Source: Fidelibacterota bacterium (GTDB lineage Bacteria > Fidelibacterota > Marinisomatia > Marinisomatales > Marinisomataceae). Taken from it: a stretch of DNA of 38,612 nucleotides. Positions 20,455 to 27,429 of this stretch are shown here, one piece after another; the stretch's first letter is position 1, and each line of letters starts with the position of its first letter. The stretch spans positions 1 to 38,612 of the forward strand of contig BPEH01000005.1 in the NCBI GenBank assembly GCA_019654715.1, read 5' to 3'. The notes beneath the pieces were generated by a model. That model searched no databases. It saw only the letters and a list, made by a program, of their open reading frames with translations, and was not told the origin of the DNA. The translations under genes were made by a program, and so were the position numbers.

Positions 20455-23400
20455 CTATCTGACAAGAACCATTTTCATGGTTTTATTATAATCGCTTTCG
20501 CCATCAACTTTTGTACGTAATTGATAGAAATAAACTCCACTACTTACATTTTCACCATCATCATTTTTCCCATCCCAAATGACAGTATGTGTACCAACAG
20601 ATTTATCTCCTTCGTCAATCGTTCTGACTAGCTTACCAATAGTGTTATAAATATATATTTCTACAGGAACTATATTAACCATCAATGATGGAACATCATA
20701 TTTGATAGTAGTCTGACTATTAAAAGGATTTGGATAATTCTGATAAAGCTTAAATGCATCAGGATTTCCTAGTTGCATCATACCATTGCCAGCCAATCCA
20801 TCTTTTGAGAATAGTTGGTAATTCATTTGTAGCGTAGCTGCTGGTGTATTCCCATCTATATAGATATACAATTCTTTTTGATCTTGAGATAATCTTCCAA
20901 ATTCCACTTCATATAATTGATTAATACTATCTTCATTTTCTAGAAGAATTATACCTTCATTTGTATTATTAAGAGAAAACTTTATATACATTCTCATTAT
21001 TTGCTATCTCAAATCTTCCTGCTGTAATATTGTCTGGTAGTGTAATCTTAATTTGATTTCCAGATAATTCAGGGAGGGAAGTCAATAGGATTCAATTCAA
21101 TCTCTTCTTCTGATTCTGAAGTTCTTCCTTGAGCTTTTGTCCATTGCCAGTTTCTAGTAAATGCACTTATATCATAGATATCAGCGTTACCATCAAGTGT
21201 TGGTACAAGATAAGGTGCTAGTTCCTGTAGCTGGACCAATATCAACGCTTGGCCATGCATTTACAAGTGAATTTAAATCTTCAACATCTACATCCCAGTC
21301 ATTATCATAATCACCTAGCATAGATGTATAGGTTGTAAATCCACTAATAATAGCATCTGAGTTATTACCACTTTCATCAAATGCGGCAACTTTGAGATAA
21401 TATTTTGTATAATCATCAAGAGTTAATCCAGTCAATGTTAAATTGGTTAAACCAACATTTTGATAGTGTACAACATCTGCGTTAAGATCTTGATCAGTTG
21501 TTCCAATACCCATATAATAGTATGCTATTCCAACATTATCTGACCAACCATCAACGGTGATTGCGATATCAGAAGTGCTTCTTAGATATTCACTATCATG
21601 TAAATCATTGATTGTATATGTTCCAGCGGTTGGACCAGTACTATCTAATATATAGCTTGTTTGGCTTGAAATTGTTTCATTACCATCATTATCCACTGCC
21701 CCCTACCTTGTAGTACCATTTTTCTCCTTGACTTAAATTATCATGAAGCAATGAATCGACTCCAAAGGTTTGTAAAAAAGACAAATGTTGTATCAGGCCA
21801 AGGTGTGTTGATGGAGATGCATAGAAATGTTCTGAATTAATATTGCCCATTGTTCCTTGACCAAGCAATGTTGAATTATCAGCAGTAAAATCATCTGTTT
21901 GGCTTGTATATACATTATATGAAGCAAGATCTGATTCGCCATTTCTATTCCAGAAAATAGCTACACCATCATCACTTGCATTCCATACTTCATTTGTTGC
22001 ATCATATACAAGTTCTGGTTCCGCACTGAGGCCTGAAGGTGCTAATGGGGCACCATCTGTAGATAATTCTCCTGCAGTCAGTGTAAAATTATCAAAGAAT
22101 GCATAAAACTGATTGGTGGTTTTCATATGAATTGCAACACGAACATTAGAACCAGACCATTGGCTTAGGTTGTATGTTTGCTGTGTCCACGCACCAGCAG
22201 TGTCTTCAACATTCGCTAAGTGACAGTAAAGTCAGCAATATTAGTACCGCCAGTAGGGGATAGTAAGACATCATATATTTCAGTACACTACCATCATGCA
22301 TTCTTGTATAAAAACTTAAAATATTGTCAGTGCCTGGTCTTAACCATAAATCAGGGCTAATAAGCCAATCATCTGCATCGGACCACTAGAACCCATTCCA
22401 AGTCCTGCCATCCAGTGACTACCATCAGCTGCTCCAAATCCTGCAGTATAATACCACCAAGACCATTCCTCAGCATCGCCATTCGCATTCACGGTTAAGA
22501 ATTCATGTACATCTCTTCTTCCATCAGCCCAACCATATGGATTTGTTTCAAATCCTTCTTCCCATAATGTATCTTGTTGTGCTGTTGCCCAAATAATATT
22601 GTTCTTTGTCGTAGTATCAGAATTGGTTCCATCAGAAATTGTTAATGCAACATCATATTGACCAGAAGCAGTATAGATATGTGATGGAGATTGATCACTA
22701 CTTGTAGATCCATCACCAAAATCCCAAGACCATGAAGTCGGAGATCCAGTTGATCTATCATTAAATTGAACAGTTAATGGGAATACTCCAGAGGTCTTAT
22801 CAGGAGTAAATGCAGCATTTAAAGGCGCAGTAGAAGTAAATCCAGTTGAATAAAACATACCGCGACCATGAGTTCCTGCAGCCATTGCACCATCTGCAGC
22901 TCTTCTAACGAGCATATCAGTTCTAACATTAGCCAATCCATCGTTGGATGGATTCCATGTTGGACTTGCAGCAGAAACATCATCGGATACCCATGTTCCA
23001 AGTTCAGTAGCTACAATTACTTGATTAAAATTATTTTTATTATATAGTCCCCATCTAATAGGCATGTCAGGTAGATCACCTTCGATATCTATCCAACCAT
23101 TTGCTCCACCACCACCTATGGTTTCCCAAACAGAAGAAACTCCGTAATTAGAAATGGCAACTAAAATTTGATTATCATCTTCTCCAATATCAATTGATGA
23201 AACATAGCCACTCATACCTGACCCGCCAATTTCAGTTGCACTATAGGTAGATGTATGAGCATCTGTAATCTTAAATACGCGTCCACCAGCTGTACCAACA
23301 AATAGAACTCCATTTGTATGAGGAGAAACTTTAAATGCAGATGCAGTAGAGCCTAGATTAACATTCATCAGTGTTTTATCAGATAATGTGGTATAACTAT

Positions 23401-25235
23401 TTAGTCGTAATATTGTTGATGCATCAACTGCAGAATAAAAAGCTTTATTTGGACCATCAATCGTGGAAGGATTGATAAAGAATCCAGTGTCACCACCGCT
23501 AGCATCTTCATGGTTTGCATATAAAGACCAATTTGTTCCACCATTGGTACTTCTATATATAGTGTTATACGTTGTTGCAGTAAACTGATAATTAGGATCT
23601 ACTTGATAAATATGTGCGAATGCTCCATCTCCACCGACTCTTTGATTACCGCTTTGAATGCCAGTACCGCTTATTGTCCAAGTACCATTATCTTGGGTTC
23701 CACCAAGAACATATTCACTTCCAGCATCTGGATGTAGTGCAACAGAATAGAATTGACTTACATTATATCCTGTATTTCTTTCATTGACTGTAGCTCCTGC
23801 ATCAGCGGTATAATATACTCCTCCATCATTAGAGAAGATAATAGCATTACTATCAATAAATTTTATATTATGCTGGTCAACATGCATATTGGCAAATTGT
23901 GATCCTCCAGAATTTGTAACTTGAGTCCAACTAGCTCCACTATCTGTTGTTTTGAAAATATCAAGTTCACCAGCAAAAACAGTATTTGGGTCATTTGGAT
24001 CAACTCCAAAAAATTAAATCATAACCTGCTTGACCATTGGCATCTCCCAAAACATTTCCATTAGCATCAATAGGGAATGGGTCAGTAGTTCCAGCAGTAT
24101 ATATAGTCCAATTAGCACCACCATCTGTTGTTTTTGTAATCCAACCAACTTTTTGTGAATTGCTATCTGCAATCATAGCGTAGACGGTATTTGGATCAGA
24201 AGGAGCAACTGATAAGATAACTCGGTTCATTGTTCCAATAACACCTAAAGATGCTTTGGTCCATGTTGAACCATCATCAGAATAGAAAATATCTCCTCCA
24301 CCATCACCATAAACATTGGTTCGTGATCCTGCCCAAATTCTATTATCACTACCCAAGTCTAAATCCATAATTTCATATGGAGTATTATTTGCAGTCATAT
24401 CCATAACTTGGGTCCAAGTAGATCCACCATCAGTTGATCTCCATAGCCCTGTATTTGCAGATCCATGCCATTGGCCTTCATAATAATGTCCACCAACACC
24501 AGCATATACAACACTTGATCCTGATTCATTTCTTACAATAATATCAGTGACATAGTTAAAATTTTCTGTTGAGGTAAGATGAGTCCATGATCCACCACCA
24601 TCGGTTGATTTCCACATTCCAAGTCCTCGACTTGCTGTAGAAAAGATTCCCATTCTTTCTCCAGTACCTACATACATGATATTAGCATCATTTGGATCAG
24701 AAGAAATACTACATACTGCTAAATTGCCCCATGTTCCATCTACTTCACTCCATGTTGGAGCTGAAATAGTAATATCATTGGTGTACCATAATCCTCCACT
24801 AACACCAGCTGCCCATAATTTCTTTTTTGTAGAGTCATTTGGATCAATAAGTAAAGCTCTTGTTCTTCCACCAATGGTATTTGGTCCTCTTTCAGACCAA
24901 TTGACTTCGGTCATACGATTTGCATAAGCCCAACTTGTGCGTTTTTCTTCTGCAATTTCTAAAGCATCCAAAATACGTTCTGTAGGAATAGTGCCTGTAT
25001 TTGGATCATGAAGCATCAAATAATCATGAGTTCCTTTTAAATCAGGTCGAAGTGCTTTTGGTAGTGCTTTTGATTCTTTGAAAGAAAGCGTATCTCTTTG
25101 TAAAAAACTATTGATAAATTGTTCATATTCAACACGTTTCTTTTCATTTAAAAAGTTTCTTATATCTTGTTCAATTGGTTGATATAACACCAAGAATGAT
25201 ATAGTAAATCCAATGATATAATTTATTTTTTTCAT
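20455..25235 (-). CDS. Large secreted beta-propeller protein with PKD, adhesin-like, Fn3, dockerin-like and FlgD/T9SS C-terminal domains; several frameshifts
   Basis: About 1590 residues when repaired. Order: signal peptide (MKKINYIIGFTISFLVLY); sortilin/BNR-type beta-propeller, about residues 90-770, with repeats such as WKSTDGGGSWTHL, WRSTDGGSTWTQV, KTTDGGANWTIY and YRSTNGGTNW; PKD domain, about 800-880 (WSWDFGDGSTSSDQSP); choice-of-anchor-J-like region, about 890-1050 (EGFETNPYGW); Fn3-like segments, about 1060-1300; dockerin-like double loop, about 1305-1370 (bases about 21130-21315); and a C-terminal FlgD-like Ig domain with YQNYPNPFNSQTTIKYDVP ending NKTMKMVLVR, as in type IX secretion substrates. 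It is probably exported and surface-attached. The start is M at 25235; an upstream in-frame ATG at 25274 overlaps the preceding gene. Breaks lie near 20.998, 21.07, 21.23, 21.69, 22.2-22.37 and 24.0 kb. No catalytic site was recognised. Confidence 0.88.
21130..21315 (-). other. Dockerin-like calcium-loop module inside the surface protein
   Basis: On the minus strand the first loop reads GDYDNDWDVDVEDL (D at positions 1, 3, 5 and 12 of the EF-hand-like loop) and is followed by a helix LNSLVNAW. About 25 residues later comes a second, weaker copy LDGNADIYDISAFTRNW, where positions 5 (D), 6 (G), 9 (D) and 12 (D) match the dockerin loop but positions 1 and 3 do not. Two such loops 20-30 residues apart are the hallmark of dockerins. 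Related modules occur in FCB-group secreted proteins. A one-base error at about 21225 separates the two loops into different raw frames. Confidence 0.65.
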
Positions 25236-25239
25236 ATTC

Positions 25240-26265
25240 TTAATTAACATATATATACCCATCTTGTGAACCATTTACAGTAATGTTATTTCCATCTACA
25301 TCAAGGAAAATAGTATTAGTATTGTCAAAAATAATTGATGTTGTGCTAGTTACAGTAAATCGACAGTTGCTATCACTCCATCTCCATCTGCTGATGGTTT
25401 ATCACTTGATAGAGATGATGTATAAATAGTGACTTCTCCATTTGATTCATCTTTAGTAACAATTAACAATGGATCAGTATTGCCTTTTAAGAAATCTCCA
25501 AAAGCAACATTACCAATCGTTACAGTACTTGCGTCATATACCAATTTTGCTTGCGCAGCTGCCAATCCAGTTACTCCCATTACTTTTAGACTTAAAGTAA
25601 TAGTAGTGCCATTGCTTGTATCTGTATATTTTGGATCAATAATAATGGCTGGAGTTCCAAGAGTGCTGACATTAATATATCCAGTCTTAGTTTCTAGATC
25701 TGTACCACCTTCTCCTAGCACATCTAATGAAACATCATAACTACCTACTGCAGTATATGTATGCATAGGGTTGGTATCAGTACTTGTATTTCCATCTCCA
25801 AAATCCCAAGTAGATTGAGTATAACGAAGCGAATTATTAATAAATTGAACTCTCAAATCAGGAGTGCCGCTAGTAGTAGTTGCTTCAAAATCAGCATTTG
25901 GTGGAAGTACAGTTACTGTAATATAATCTGTTTTGGTGGTTGAATCACTTCCTGCTGGTCCTACAACAGTGAGTGAAACGGTATATGTACCAGCTGCTGT
26001 ATAGGTATGATTATAGGTATAAGTACCACCATCAACTGTTCCATCATTGTCAGCATCCCATTGATGAGAATTAATATCTCCTGTTGATTGAGATGCAAAT
26101 TGTACAGATAATGGGACTGTTCCCTGATAAAGGGCTACCAGTAAATGCTGCTACTGGAGGAGTATTTCCTGATCCACCATCTCCACCATCATCACTACCG
26201 CCACCGCCGCCACCACCGCCGCAGCCTAGTAATACAACTAAAAACGCTAATAATATTTTTTTCAA
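25240..26265 (-). CDS. Lipoprotein with two PKD domains and a cohesin-like domain; two frameshifts
   Basis: The repaired product has 341 residues. The N terminus MKKILLAFLVVLLGC is a lipoprotein signal with lipobox LLGC (C15), followed by an eight-glycine linker and an acidic Gly/Asp stretch. PKD domain 1 is about residues 38-120 and PKD 2 about 121-198, with WDFGDGNTSTDTNPMHTY. Residues about 202-341 resemble a cohesin domain (PAIIIDPKYTDTSNGTTI, then LAAAQAKLVYDASTVTIG and VAFGDFLKGN). An extra base at about 26120 and a missing base at about 25362 break the raw frame; the true stop is TAA 25240-25242. The gap to the propeller gene is only 4 bases. I infer membrane anchoring with the cohesin-like domain exposed. 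PKD assignment is firm, cohesin less so. Confidence 0.82.
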
Positions 26266-26345: not shown

Positions 26346-27429
26346 TTATTTTTTTGTAATTGTAATATTTCTGTCTTCTAAATAATTAAGAATATGATGC
26401 ATACACTGTTCTTTTTTCCCTATTATTTCTGGTGGGAATACTCCTGAATCAATCCATAATTTTCCCAAAATGAGATTAATCGTAGCGGTTGCTGTGTACC
26501 CTGTGGTACGCGCCATAGATGATGTTTGAGAGGCTGTATTAAATTCATCATAGAGGTGATATTCAATTTTTTCTGTAGTTCCTTTAATGATAATATCCAT
26601 TATAGTAAATTCTGCTTCATTTTTTTCTAGCTTCCAATCTTCAAATAATTGTCTTGAGGTTTCTTGAATATTGTTTTTATTAAATAATCCTTTATTTCTA
26701 TAGTCTACCATCAGTTGTGCATGTTTTGGATAGCGTAATGTTTTTTCTTTCATATTTGGAATATGATTCATAGTAGATAAGATTGATCGCAATCCATCTG
26801 TATTAAATGCTTCTAATTTTCCTACTTCTTCAAAAAATATTGTTTCTATTTCAGAGAGCGCTGGTTTTGTTCTCAACTGTCCATTAATCATCATTCTTGC
26901 TGGGACGTGTGTATTCTTCAATAACATCGATTGGGGAAAAAGGTGCTTTATAATAAAAAGGGGGAGTAGGATTTTTTGGAAGACCACCAACATAGTATTC
27001 AAATGATTCAATGCTCATTCTGGAATTCCAGTAACCAAGAAGATAATTTGGTATGCCAGGTGCAACGCCTGCATCCACAATACTAATAACATTGTTTTTC
27101 TTTGCAAGAGGATTCAGATCTAAAACATTTTCTGGAGCAAATGAAATATCTACAACATGTTTTCCGGCTTCGATAATTGTTTTTAATGTTTCATATCCTA
27201 AAAATCCAGGAACTGCTAATAAAACAATATCTGCAGGTTGAATCCATTCAGATAAAGCATTTTTATTTTTGACATCTAATTGTTGAATTTGAATAGAATT
27301 ATTTTGAGACTGAATTTTGGCAAGTGATTTTTTGTTATTATCTGATAAAAATACATCATGATTGTTTGCAAGATCTAATGCCATTGCACTACCAACCATA
27401 CCAGAGCCAATTTGGAAAATATTAGCCAC
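26346..27429 (-). CDS. Saccharopine dehydrogenase family protein, one frameshift
   Basis: The repaired protein has 360 residues. It begins MANIFQIGSGMVGSAMALDLA, an NAD(P)-binding GxGxxG motif, with DIVLLAVPGFLGYETLKTII and VDAGVAPGIPNYLLG, the conserved saccharopine dehydrogenase segments. The C-terminal half (KPALSEIETIFFEEVGKLEAFNTDGL and SSMARTTGYTATATINLILG) matches the substrate domain. The family includes saccharopine reductases and lysine 6-dehydrogenases; the reaction here is not determinable. One extra C (GGG on the + strand at 26902-26904) shifts the frame. The start lies 8 bases from the 3' end of tRNA-Asp on the same strand. Confidence 0.85.

What the first reader, a model, noticed from the sequence alone, without database searches (positions are those of the whole stretch)
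21130..26265. Adjacent cohesin-like lipoprotein and dockerin-like secreted propeller: a possible matched surface-anchoring pair
Two genes 4 bases apart on the minus strand encode (i) a lipoprotein with two PKD domains and a C-terminal cohesin-like fold and (ii) a roughly 1590-residue beta-propeller protein with two dockerin-type loops (GDYDNDWDVDVEDL and LDGNADIYDI) and a FlgD/T9SS-type C terminus. Sequence shows the loops, lipobox and domains. Cohesin-dockerin pairing is established in cellulosomes. That these two bind each other, outside any cellulase context and in addition to a T9SS-like signal, is inference, and would be an unusual way to hold a large secreted protein at the cell surface.
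Basis: partly seen in the sequence, partly recalled or inferred. Interest (0 to 1): 0.68.

Follow-up and report, generated by a model that had tools for sequence, protein, structure and literature searches.

The report
Cohesin lipoprotein beside dockerin-bearing secreted protein
An uncultured bacterium carries, side by side, a membrane-anchored protein with a "socket" (cohesin) and a giant secreted protein with a matching type of "plug" (dockerin), and the same gene pairing recurs across its phylum, which suggests a dedicated way, unrelated to cellulose breakdown, of holding large secreted proteins on the cell surface; binding itself has not been shown.

Summary
The minus-strand genes at 26265-25240 and 25235-20455 are a PKD-PKD-cohesin lipoprotein and, 4 bases on, a propeller protein (1570-1607 aa in relatives) with a dockerin-like module and a type IX (T9SS) C terminus. 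Frameshifts break both here; eight relatives carry an intact propeller beside the lipoprotein.

The cohesin is real: it passes Pfam's cut-off, and its family profile finds solved cellulosomal cohesins. The dockerin-like module fails Pfam Dockerin_1 but resembles Pfam-confirmed dockerins in profile comparison, both calcium loops in register.

The pair is no local accident. In the genus the two genes are present or absent together; five pair-less genomes show an empty site. In 60 further cohesin-lipoprotein loci from genomes used to build neither profile, 33 have the module in the next gene and 6 one gene further; 15 run off contigs. The cargos share little but dockerin, a cohesin-like module and the T9SS tail.

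Against strict pairing: an M43-protease-like protein carries the module in genomes without the lipoprotein, each large protein has its own cohesin-like domain, and co-divergence is no tighter than with the upstream neighbour. Binding is inferred. Best reading: cohesin lipoprotein anchoring T9SS cargo (0.6).

The parts
25240..26265 (-). lipoprotein gene: signal peptide and lipobox, Gly-rich linker, PKD, PKD, cohesin (two frameshifts in this assembly)
   Evidence: intact homologues L031-L040
26221..26223 (-). lipobox cysteine (VVLLGC) followed by GGGGGGGGSDD linker
   Evidence: read directly; the cysteine is conserved in relatives
25250..25660 (-). cohesin domain (Pfam match 25356-25622, last strands after a frameshift)
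   Evidence: PF00963 33.8 bits, cut-off 24.1; family profile A6 finds solved cellulosomal cohesins, best E 2e-15
20455..25235 (-). large secreted protein gene: N-terminal hydrophobic segment, BNR/Sortilin-type propeller, PKD, choice-of-anchor J, Ig/FN3-like, dockerin-like, cohesin-like module, T9SS C terminus (several frameshifts in this assembly)
21110..21339 (-). dockerin-like module: two F-hand loops, frameshift between them near 21215
   Evidence: profile A3 matches 21214-21339 (E 3.8e-21) and 21123-21218 (E 1.0e-13); no Pfam Dockerin_1 hit; profile comparison with 25 Dockerin_1-positive modules
20760..21090 (-). module between dockerin and C terminus, remotely cohesin-like
   Evidence: order-wide alignment against cohesin profile A6: hhalign 82.8%, E 9.4e-6
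20458..20745 (-). FlgD_ig / type A T9SS C-terminal sorting domain
   Evidence: TIGR04183 26.7 bits, cut-off 23; PF13860 45 bits, cut-off 27

Best explanation
The two genes form a cargo-and-anchor cassette. The lipoprotein is lipidated and sits in the outer membrane with a single cohesin at the end of a Gly-rich stalk and two PKD spacers. The large propeller protein is exported by the type IX secretion system through its C-terminal domain. Outside, its calcium-loop dockerin plugs into the cohesin of the lipoprotein and holds the protein non-covalently on the cell. Across the phylum the cohesin and the dockerin / cohesin-like / CTD tail stay while the exposed part of the cargo is swapped (propellers, laminin-G, beta-helix, FN3). 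Shown: domain identities, gene adjacency and its conservation, joint presence and absence, T9SS translocon gene in relatives. Inferred: surface location of the lipoprotein, binding, calcium dependence, anchoring role.
For: Cohesin domain over Pfam cut-off; its profile hits almost only solved cellulosomal cohesins. Divergent dockerin: hhalign 74.6%, E 2.7e-5, score 28.3 against a best of 17.0 in 100 column shuffles. Adjacent in all intact genus loci; of 24 genus genomes both genes are present in 14, both absent in 7, and the 3 discordant cases lie at contig edges; empty site in five pair-less genomes. Test on genomes used in neither profile: 33 of 60 loci immediately adjacent, 6 more one gene or fragment further, 15 cut by contig ends. 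Downstream cargos share only the C-terminal block. Second pair in G015 with a different cargo and the same tail. SprA in 30 of 30 high-quality relatives.
Against: No binding data and no co-fold. Pfam Dockerin_1 does not detect the module. An M43-protease-like protein has the module in genus genomes without any detected cohesin lipoprotein. A cohesin-like domain follows the dockerin in cis. Cohesin-dockerin co-divergence (r 0.91) is matched by the linked upstream gene (r 0.92 and 0.91), so it shows linkage, not contact. The propeller's N terminus lacks an obvious signal-peptidase site (own reading).
Confidence: 0.6

Rival explanations
1. The dockerin works in cis: it packs against the cohesin-like module that follows it in the same chain, a calcium-stabilised block in front of the T9SS signal; the lipoprotein binds something else or is a separate surface protein.
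For: The large proteins examined have the order dockerin, cohesin-like module, CTD; the block exists without the lipoprotein in the M43-protease-like protein of pair-less genomes.
Against: Does not explain why a gene for a second cohesin lies directly beside the dockerin gene across a phylum or why both come and go together.
Confidence: 0.17
2. The lipoprotein faces the periplasm and acts as a cargo-specific secretion or folding helper that holds the dockerin region until T9SS export, not as a surface anchor.
For: Tight overlap of the two reading frames in most loci fits production of a dedicated partner; in other families the gene before it encodes a DUF5683 / LpoB-CsgG-like envelope protein.
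Against: The PKD and cadherin-like spacers and Gly-rich stalk look like an exposed protein; another T9SS protein of the genus (choice-of-anchor B, about 1250 aa) has the CTD without the module, so export does not need it.
Confidence: 0.13
3. The genes are only co-expressed surface proteins; cohesin-like and dockerin-like modules are general-purpose adhesin parts that do not bind each other.
For: Cohesin and canonical dockerin modules are common in single chains in this order, and co-divergence is explained by linkage.
Against: Near-constant coupling of one cohesin gene to one dockerin variant while everything else in the cargo varies.
Confidence: 0.1

Closest known systems
Cell-surface anchoring scaffoldins with a single cohesin (clostridial and ruminococcal cellulosomes; own knowledge)
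   Same: one cohesin on a surface-bound protein that can hold a dockerin-bearing protein; the profile's best solved matches are scaffoldin cohesins
   Different: lipoprotein rather than SLH or sortase anchoring, T9SS cargo, no cellulase or scaffold in the cassette, dockerin not recognised by Pfam, each cohesin gene beside one cargo gene
Cellulosome-like complex of Ca. Stygibacter, Cloacimonadota (PMC8542988)
   Same: cohesin and dockerin proteins in an uncultured group, with a C-terminal domain for surface attachment
   Different: there a 3,755-residue multi-cohesin scaffoldin with CBM domains and the surface CTD serves several enzymes; here a single-cohesin lipoprotein, and the CTD is on the dockerin cargo
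Adjacent cohesin/dockerin adhesins of ANME-partner sulfate reducers (PMC10553843)
   Same: non-cellulosomal, adjacent cohesin/dockerin domains proposed for adhesion
   Different: a lipoprotein anchor and T9SS signal are not mentioned in the passages read; that lineage is unrelated
T9SS type A cargo (TIGR04183)
   Same: C-terminal sorting domain over the NCBIfam cut-off, SprA in relatives
   Different: carries an additional dockerin-like and cohesin-like module before the sorting domain

Membership tests
Cohesin (PF00963) | profile score over the curated cut-off | tested here: met
   33.8 bits in window, up to 53.9 in relatives; cut-off 24.1
Cohesin (PF00963) | relationship to solved cohesins | tested here: met
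   profile A6: best 3l8q E 2e-15, hits below E 0.01 are cellulosomal cohesins
Cohesin (PF00963) | nine-stranded jelly-roll fold | tested here: inconclusive
   single-sequence model of truncated domain, pLDDT 41
Dockerin type I (PF00404) | profile score over the curated cut-off | tested here: not met
   no hit in the window or genus
Dockerin type I (PF00404) | two F-hand calcium loops | tested here: met
   first loop D-x-D-x-D-x-D-x-D-x-x-D invariant in the genus alignment, second loop degenerate at its first positions
Dockerin type I (PF00404) | homology to accepted dockerins | tested here: met
   hhalign 74.6%, E 2.7e-5, score above all of 100 shuffles; supports 'divergent dockerin', not a Pfam member
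Cohesin-dockerin pair | specific calcium-dependent binding | not testable with these tools
   no co-folding or wet assay available
T9SS type A substrate | C-terminal sorting domain | tested here: met
   TIGR04183 26.7 bits, cut-off 23
T9SS type A substrate | T9SS translocon in the organism | tested here: inconclusive
   SprA not found in the 65% complete own assembly, found in 19 of the 24 genus genomes
T9SS type A substrate | cleavable Sec signal peptide | tested here: inconclusive
   hydrophobic N terminus without an obvious cleavage site
Cellulosome | scaffoldin with several cohesins and CBM, plus dockerin-bearing glycoside hydrolases | tested here: not met
   one cohesin, no CBM or cellulase domain in either protein

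The most novel reading that the evidence does not exclude
A phylum-wide surface-display system in which each of many unrelated giant T9SS cargos has its own cohesin lipoprotein receptor encoded in the same cassette, plugged by a dockerin variant that current family models miss.
Probability: 0.45. Interest if true: 0.75.

Novelty: new variant of a known kind. Interest (0 to 1): 0.6.

Why it matters
Cohesin-dockerin pairing is known mainly from cellulosomes. A recurring single-cohesin lipoprotein joined to T9SS-exported cargo would be a second, general use of the pair: a modular way to keep very large proteins on Gram-negative cells, independent of plant-fibre degradation. It would explain a large set of unannotated surface proteins in an uncultured lineage, supply naturally matched binding pairs, and is directly testable with two small recombinant domains. 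Neither the literature searches nor the papers read described it, within an open-access library only.

Tried and rejected
Profiles A3 and A4 against PDB sequences gave only chance hits. Coevolution: the cohesin-dockerin distance correlation of 0.84-0.91 looked striking, but the linked upstream gene correlates equally, and within-genome re-pairing ranked the true pairing third of 48, so it was not counted as evidence for binding. The idea that the dockerin is simply part of every T9SS tail was rejected: the choice-of-anchor B protein of the genus has the tail without it. Pseudogene decay was considered for the frameshifts and judged less likely than assembly error because a neighbouring gene is split too.

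Full report
Scope and organism. The window is a whole contig (G000:C5) of a 628 kb assembly, 65% complete; genus relatives are mostly about 0.7-1.0 Mb. From gene content I take it for a Marinimicrobia-like (SAR406) member of the FCB group; this is my inference and was not tested.

The observation. On the minus strand, 26265-25240 encodes a lipoprotein (lipobox VLLGC, Gly-rich linker, two PKD domains, cohesin) and 25235-20455 a large protein whose conserved ATG follows the lipoprotein stop by four bases. The cohesin passes the Pfam cut-off even in its truncated reading frame (33.8 bits, 29.5, cut-off 24.1). The large protein shows a Sortilin/BNR propeller in the window, and its intact relatives add PKD and choice-of-anchor J domains; the C terminus passes the TIGR04183 and FlgD_ig cut-offs. 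The two dockerin-type loops are there, separated by a frameshift.

Frameshifts. The window copy is broken at several places. Eight same-genus loci have uninterrupted genes of 1570-1607 codons in the same arrangement, 55-74% identical to the first of them. The neighbouring reductase-like gene in the window is also split (26346-27011 and 26884-27429). I therefore treat the breaks as assembly or sequencing errors, not as decay, without proof.

Is it a cohesin? A profile of 20 lipoprotein cohesins from the order (A6), searched against all PDB chains, returns cellulosomal cohesins almost exclusively, the best being a ScaB adaptor-scaffoldin chain (3l8q, E 2e-15). A single genus sequence also picks cohesins, weakly.

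Is it a dockerin? Not by Pfam: Dockerin_1 misses it in the window and in the whole genus. A profile from the genus (A3) finds the module in 45 of 61 genomes. An alignment of 54 such modules compared with 25 dockerins from loci that Pfam does recognise gives hhalign probability 74.6%, E 2.7e-5, score 28.3; the best of 100 column shuffles scores 17.0; both loops align in register. I call it a divergent dockerin. The module after it is remotely cohesin-like (probability 82.8%, E 9.4e-6, score 36.8 against 17.4 for the best of 40 shuffles), and in one relative it reaches Pfam Cohesin on its own (25.7 bits, G024:C77; 22.4 bits).

Conservation in the genus. The lipoprotein is followed by the propeller in every genus locus of that type with sequence beyond it. 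Of 24 genus genomes including the own one, both genes occur in 14 (in G022 and G023 the propeller runs off the contig), both are absent in 7 (G002, G006, G007, G009, G013, G014, G019), and three are undecidable because the missing partner would lie beyond a contig end (G003, G017, G021). In G019, G006, G007, G002 and G009 the upstream reductase-like gene is followed directly by the convergent isomerase-like (SIS/CBS) gene, with no pair between: the pair comes or goes as one unit. G015 has a second, related pair: a cadherin-PKD-cohesin lipoprotein and an FG-GAP-type protein that shares only the dockerin, the following module and the tail with the propeller.

Conservation beyond the genus. In other families of the order short cohesin lipoproteins (about 180-215 aa) sit directly before dockerin-module genes, often with overlapping frames; 15 loci show immediate adjacency and 4 have one gene between. 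The cargos carry laminin-G, beta-helix, FN3, Big or propeller domains, so the C-terminal block is what they share. In several of them the gene before the lipoprotein is a DUF5683 protein with LpoB/CsgG-like similarity; it is not next to the pair in the window's genus.

A test on new genomes. A phylum scan brought cohesin lipoproteins in genomes that had contributed to neither profile. Of 60 loci fetched, 33 have the module in the immediately downstream gene, and 6 more in the gene after that or in the next fragment of a masked gene. Fifteen cannot be judged because the contig ends; two are broken by masked stretches or frame breaks; the remaining four lack the module in what can be seen, one of them (L299) with a complete T9SS tail. 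Fourteen of the positives come from outside the order. The loci were chosen for the cohesin, not for the dockerin, so the result is not circular, though the genomes are related.

T9SS. SprA (TIGR04189) is found in 56 of 61 genomes and in all 30 of high quality. It is missing from the window's own incomplete assembly. PorU and PorV were not searched.

What weakens the pairing claim. First, a roughly 850-residue M43-protease-like protein with the same dockerin, cohesin-like module and tail occurs in nearly all genus genomes, including those without any detected cohesin lipoprotein. The block can thus exist without the lipoprotein, or use another partner. Second, the cis cohesin-like module offers an intramolecular partner. 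Third, the distance correlation between cohesin and dockerin (0.84-0.91) is no evidence of contact: the linked upstream gene gives 0.92 and 0.91, and within-genome re-pairing puts the true pairing third of 48. Fourth, no structure or co-fold could be obtained.

Mechanism. I favour an outer-membrane cohesin lipoprotein that holds a T9SS-exported dockerin cargo on the surface (0.6). Shown are the domains, the gene order, its conservation and the joint gain or loss. Inferred are the surface position, the binding and the anchoring. Rivals are a cis clamp (0.17), a periplasmic secretion helper (0.13) and mere co-expression (0.10).

Known relatives. Adjacent non-cellulosomal cohesin/dockerin proteins are reported in syntrophic sulfate reducers (PMC10553843), and a cellulosome-like system with a CTD-anchored multi-cohesin scaffoldin in Cloacimonadota (PMC8542988). 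A rumen Bacteroidetes population with T9SS-linked cellulases had no cohesins or dockerins (PMC5831590). The review of non-cellulosomal modules by Peer and co-workers is not held. I found no description of a single-cohesin lipoprotein coupled to T9SS cargo in the searched library. Verdict: new variant of a known kind.

Noticed in passing
L165:1-2370 (G023), L167, L174 and homologues in nearly all genus genomes: About 850-residue M43 (pappalysin-like) metalloprotease-like protein with the same dockerin, cohesin-like and T9SS tail, present even where the cohesin lipoprotein is absent.
   Followed up: partly
L038:701-6100 (G015:C3): Second cohesin-lipoprotein pair with an FG-GAP-type cargo near a contig end; another lipoprotein with a similar start follows directly at about 5940.
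   Followed up: partly
L012, L013, L016, L024, L025: Single chains in other families that combine cohesin and dockerin domains with a T9SS tail; canonical Dockerin_1 modules number 1-12 per genome in most of the order but none in the window's genus.
   Followed up: no
L181:614-1609, L190:713-1795 and equivalents: In other families a DUF5683 protein with LpoB/CsgG-like similarity precedes the cohesin lipoprotein, making a three-gene cassette.
   Followed up: partly
window 26346-27429: The flanking reductase-like gene is also split by a frameshift, which points to indel errors in this contig.
   Followed up: partly
L061:709-1914, L057:706-1935: A separate PKD-bearing lipoprotein (about 402-410 aa) with an esterase-like domain in many genus genomes.
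   Followed up: no
L343:419-4174, L344:360-4136: About 1250-residue choice-of-anchor B protein with a T9SS tail but no dockerin-like module.
   Followed up: yes
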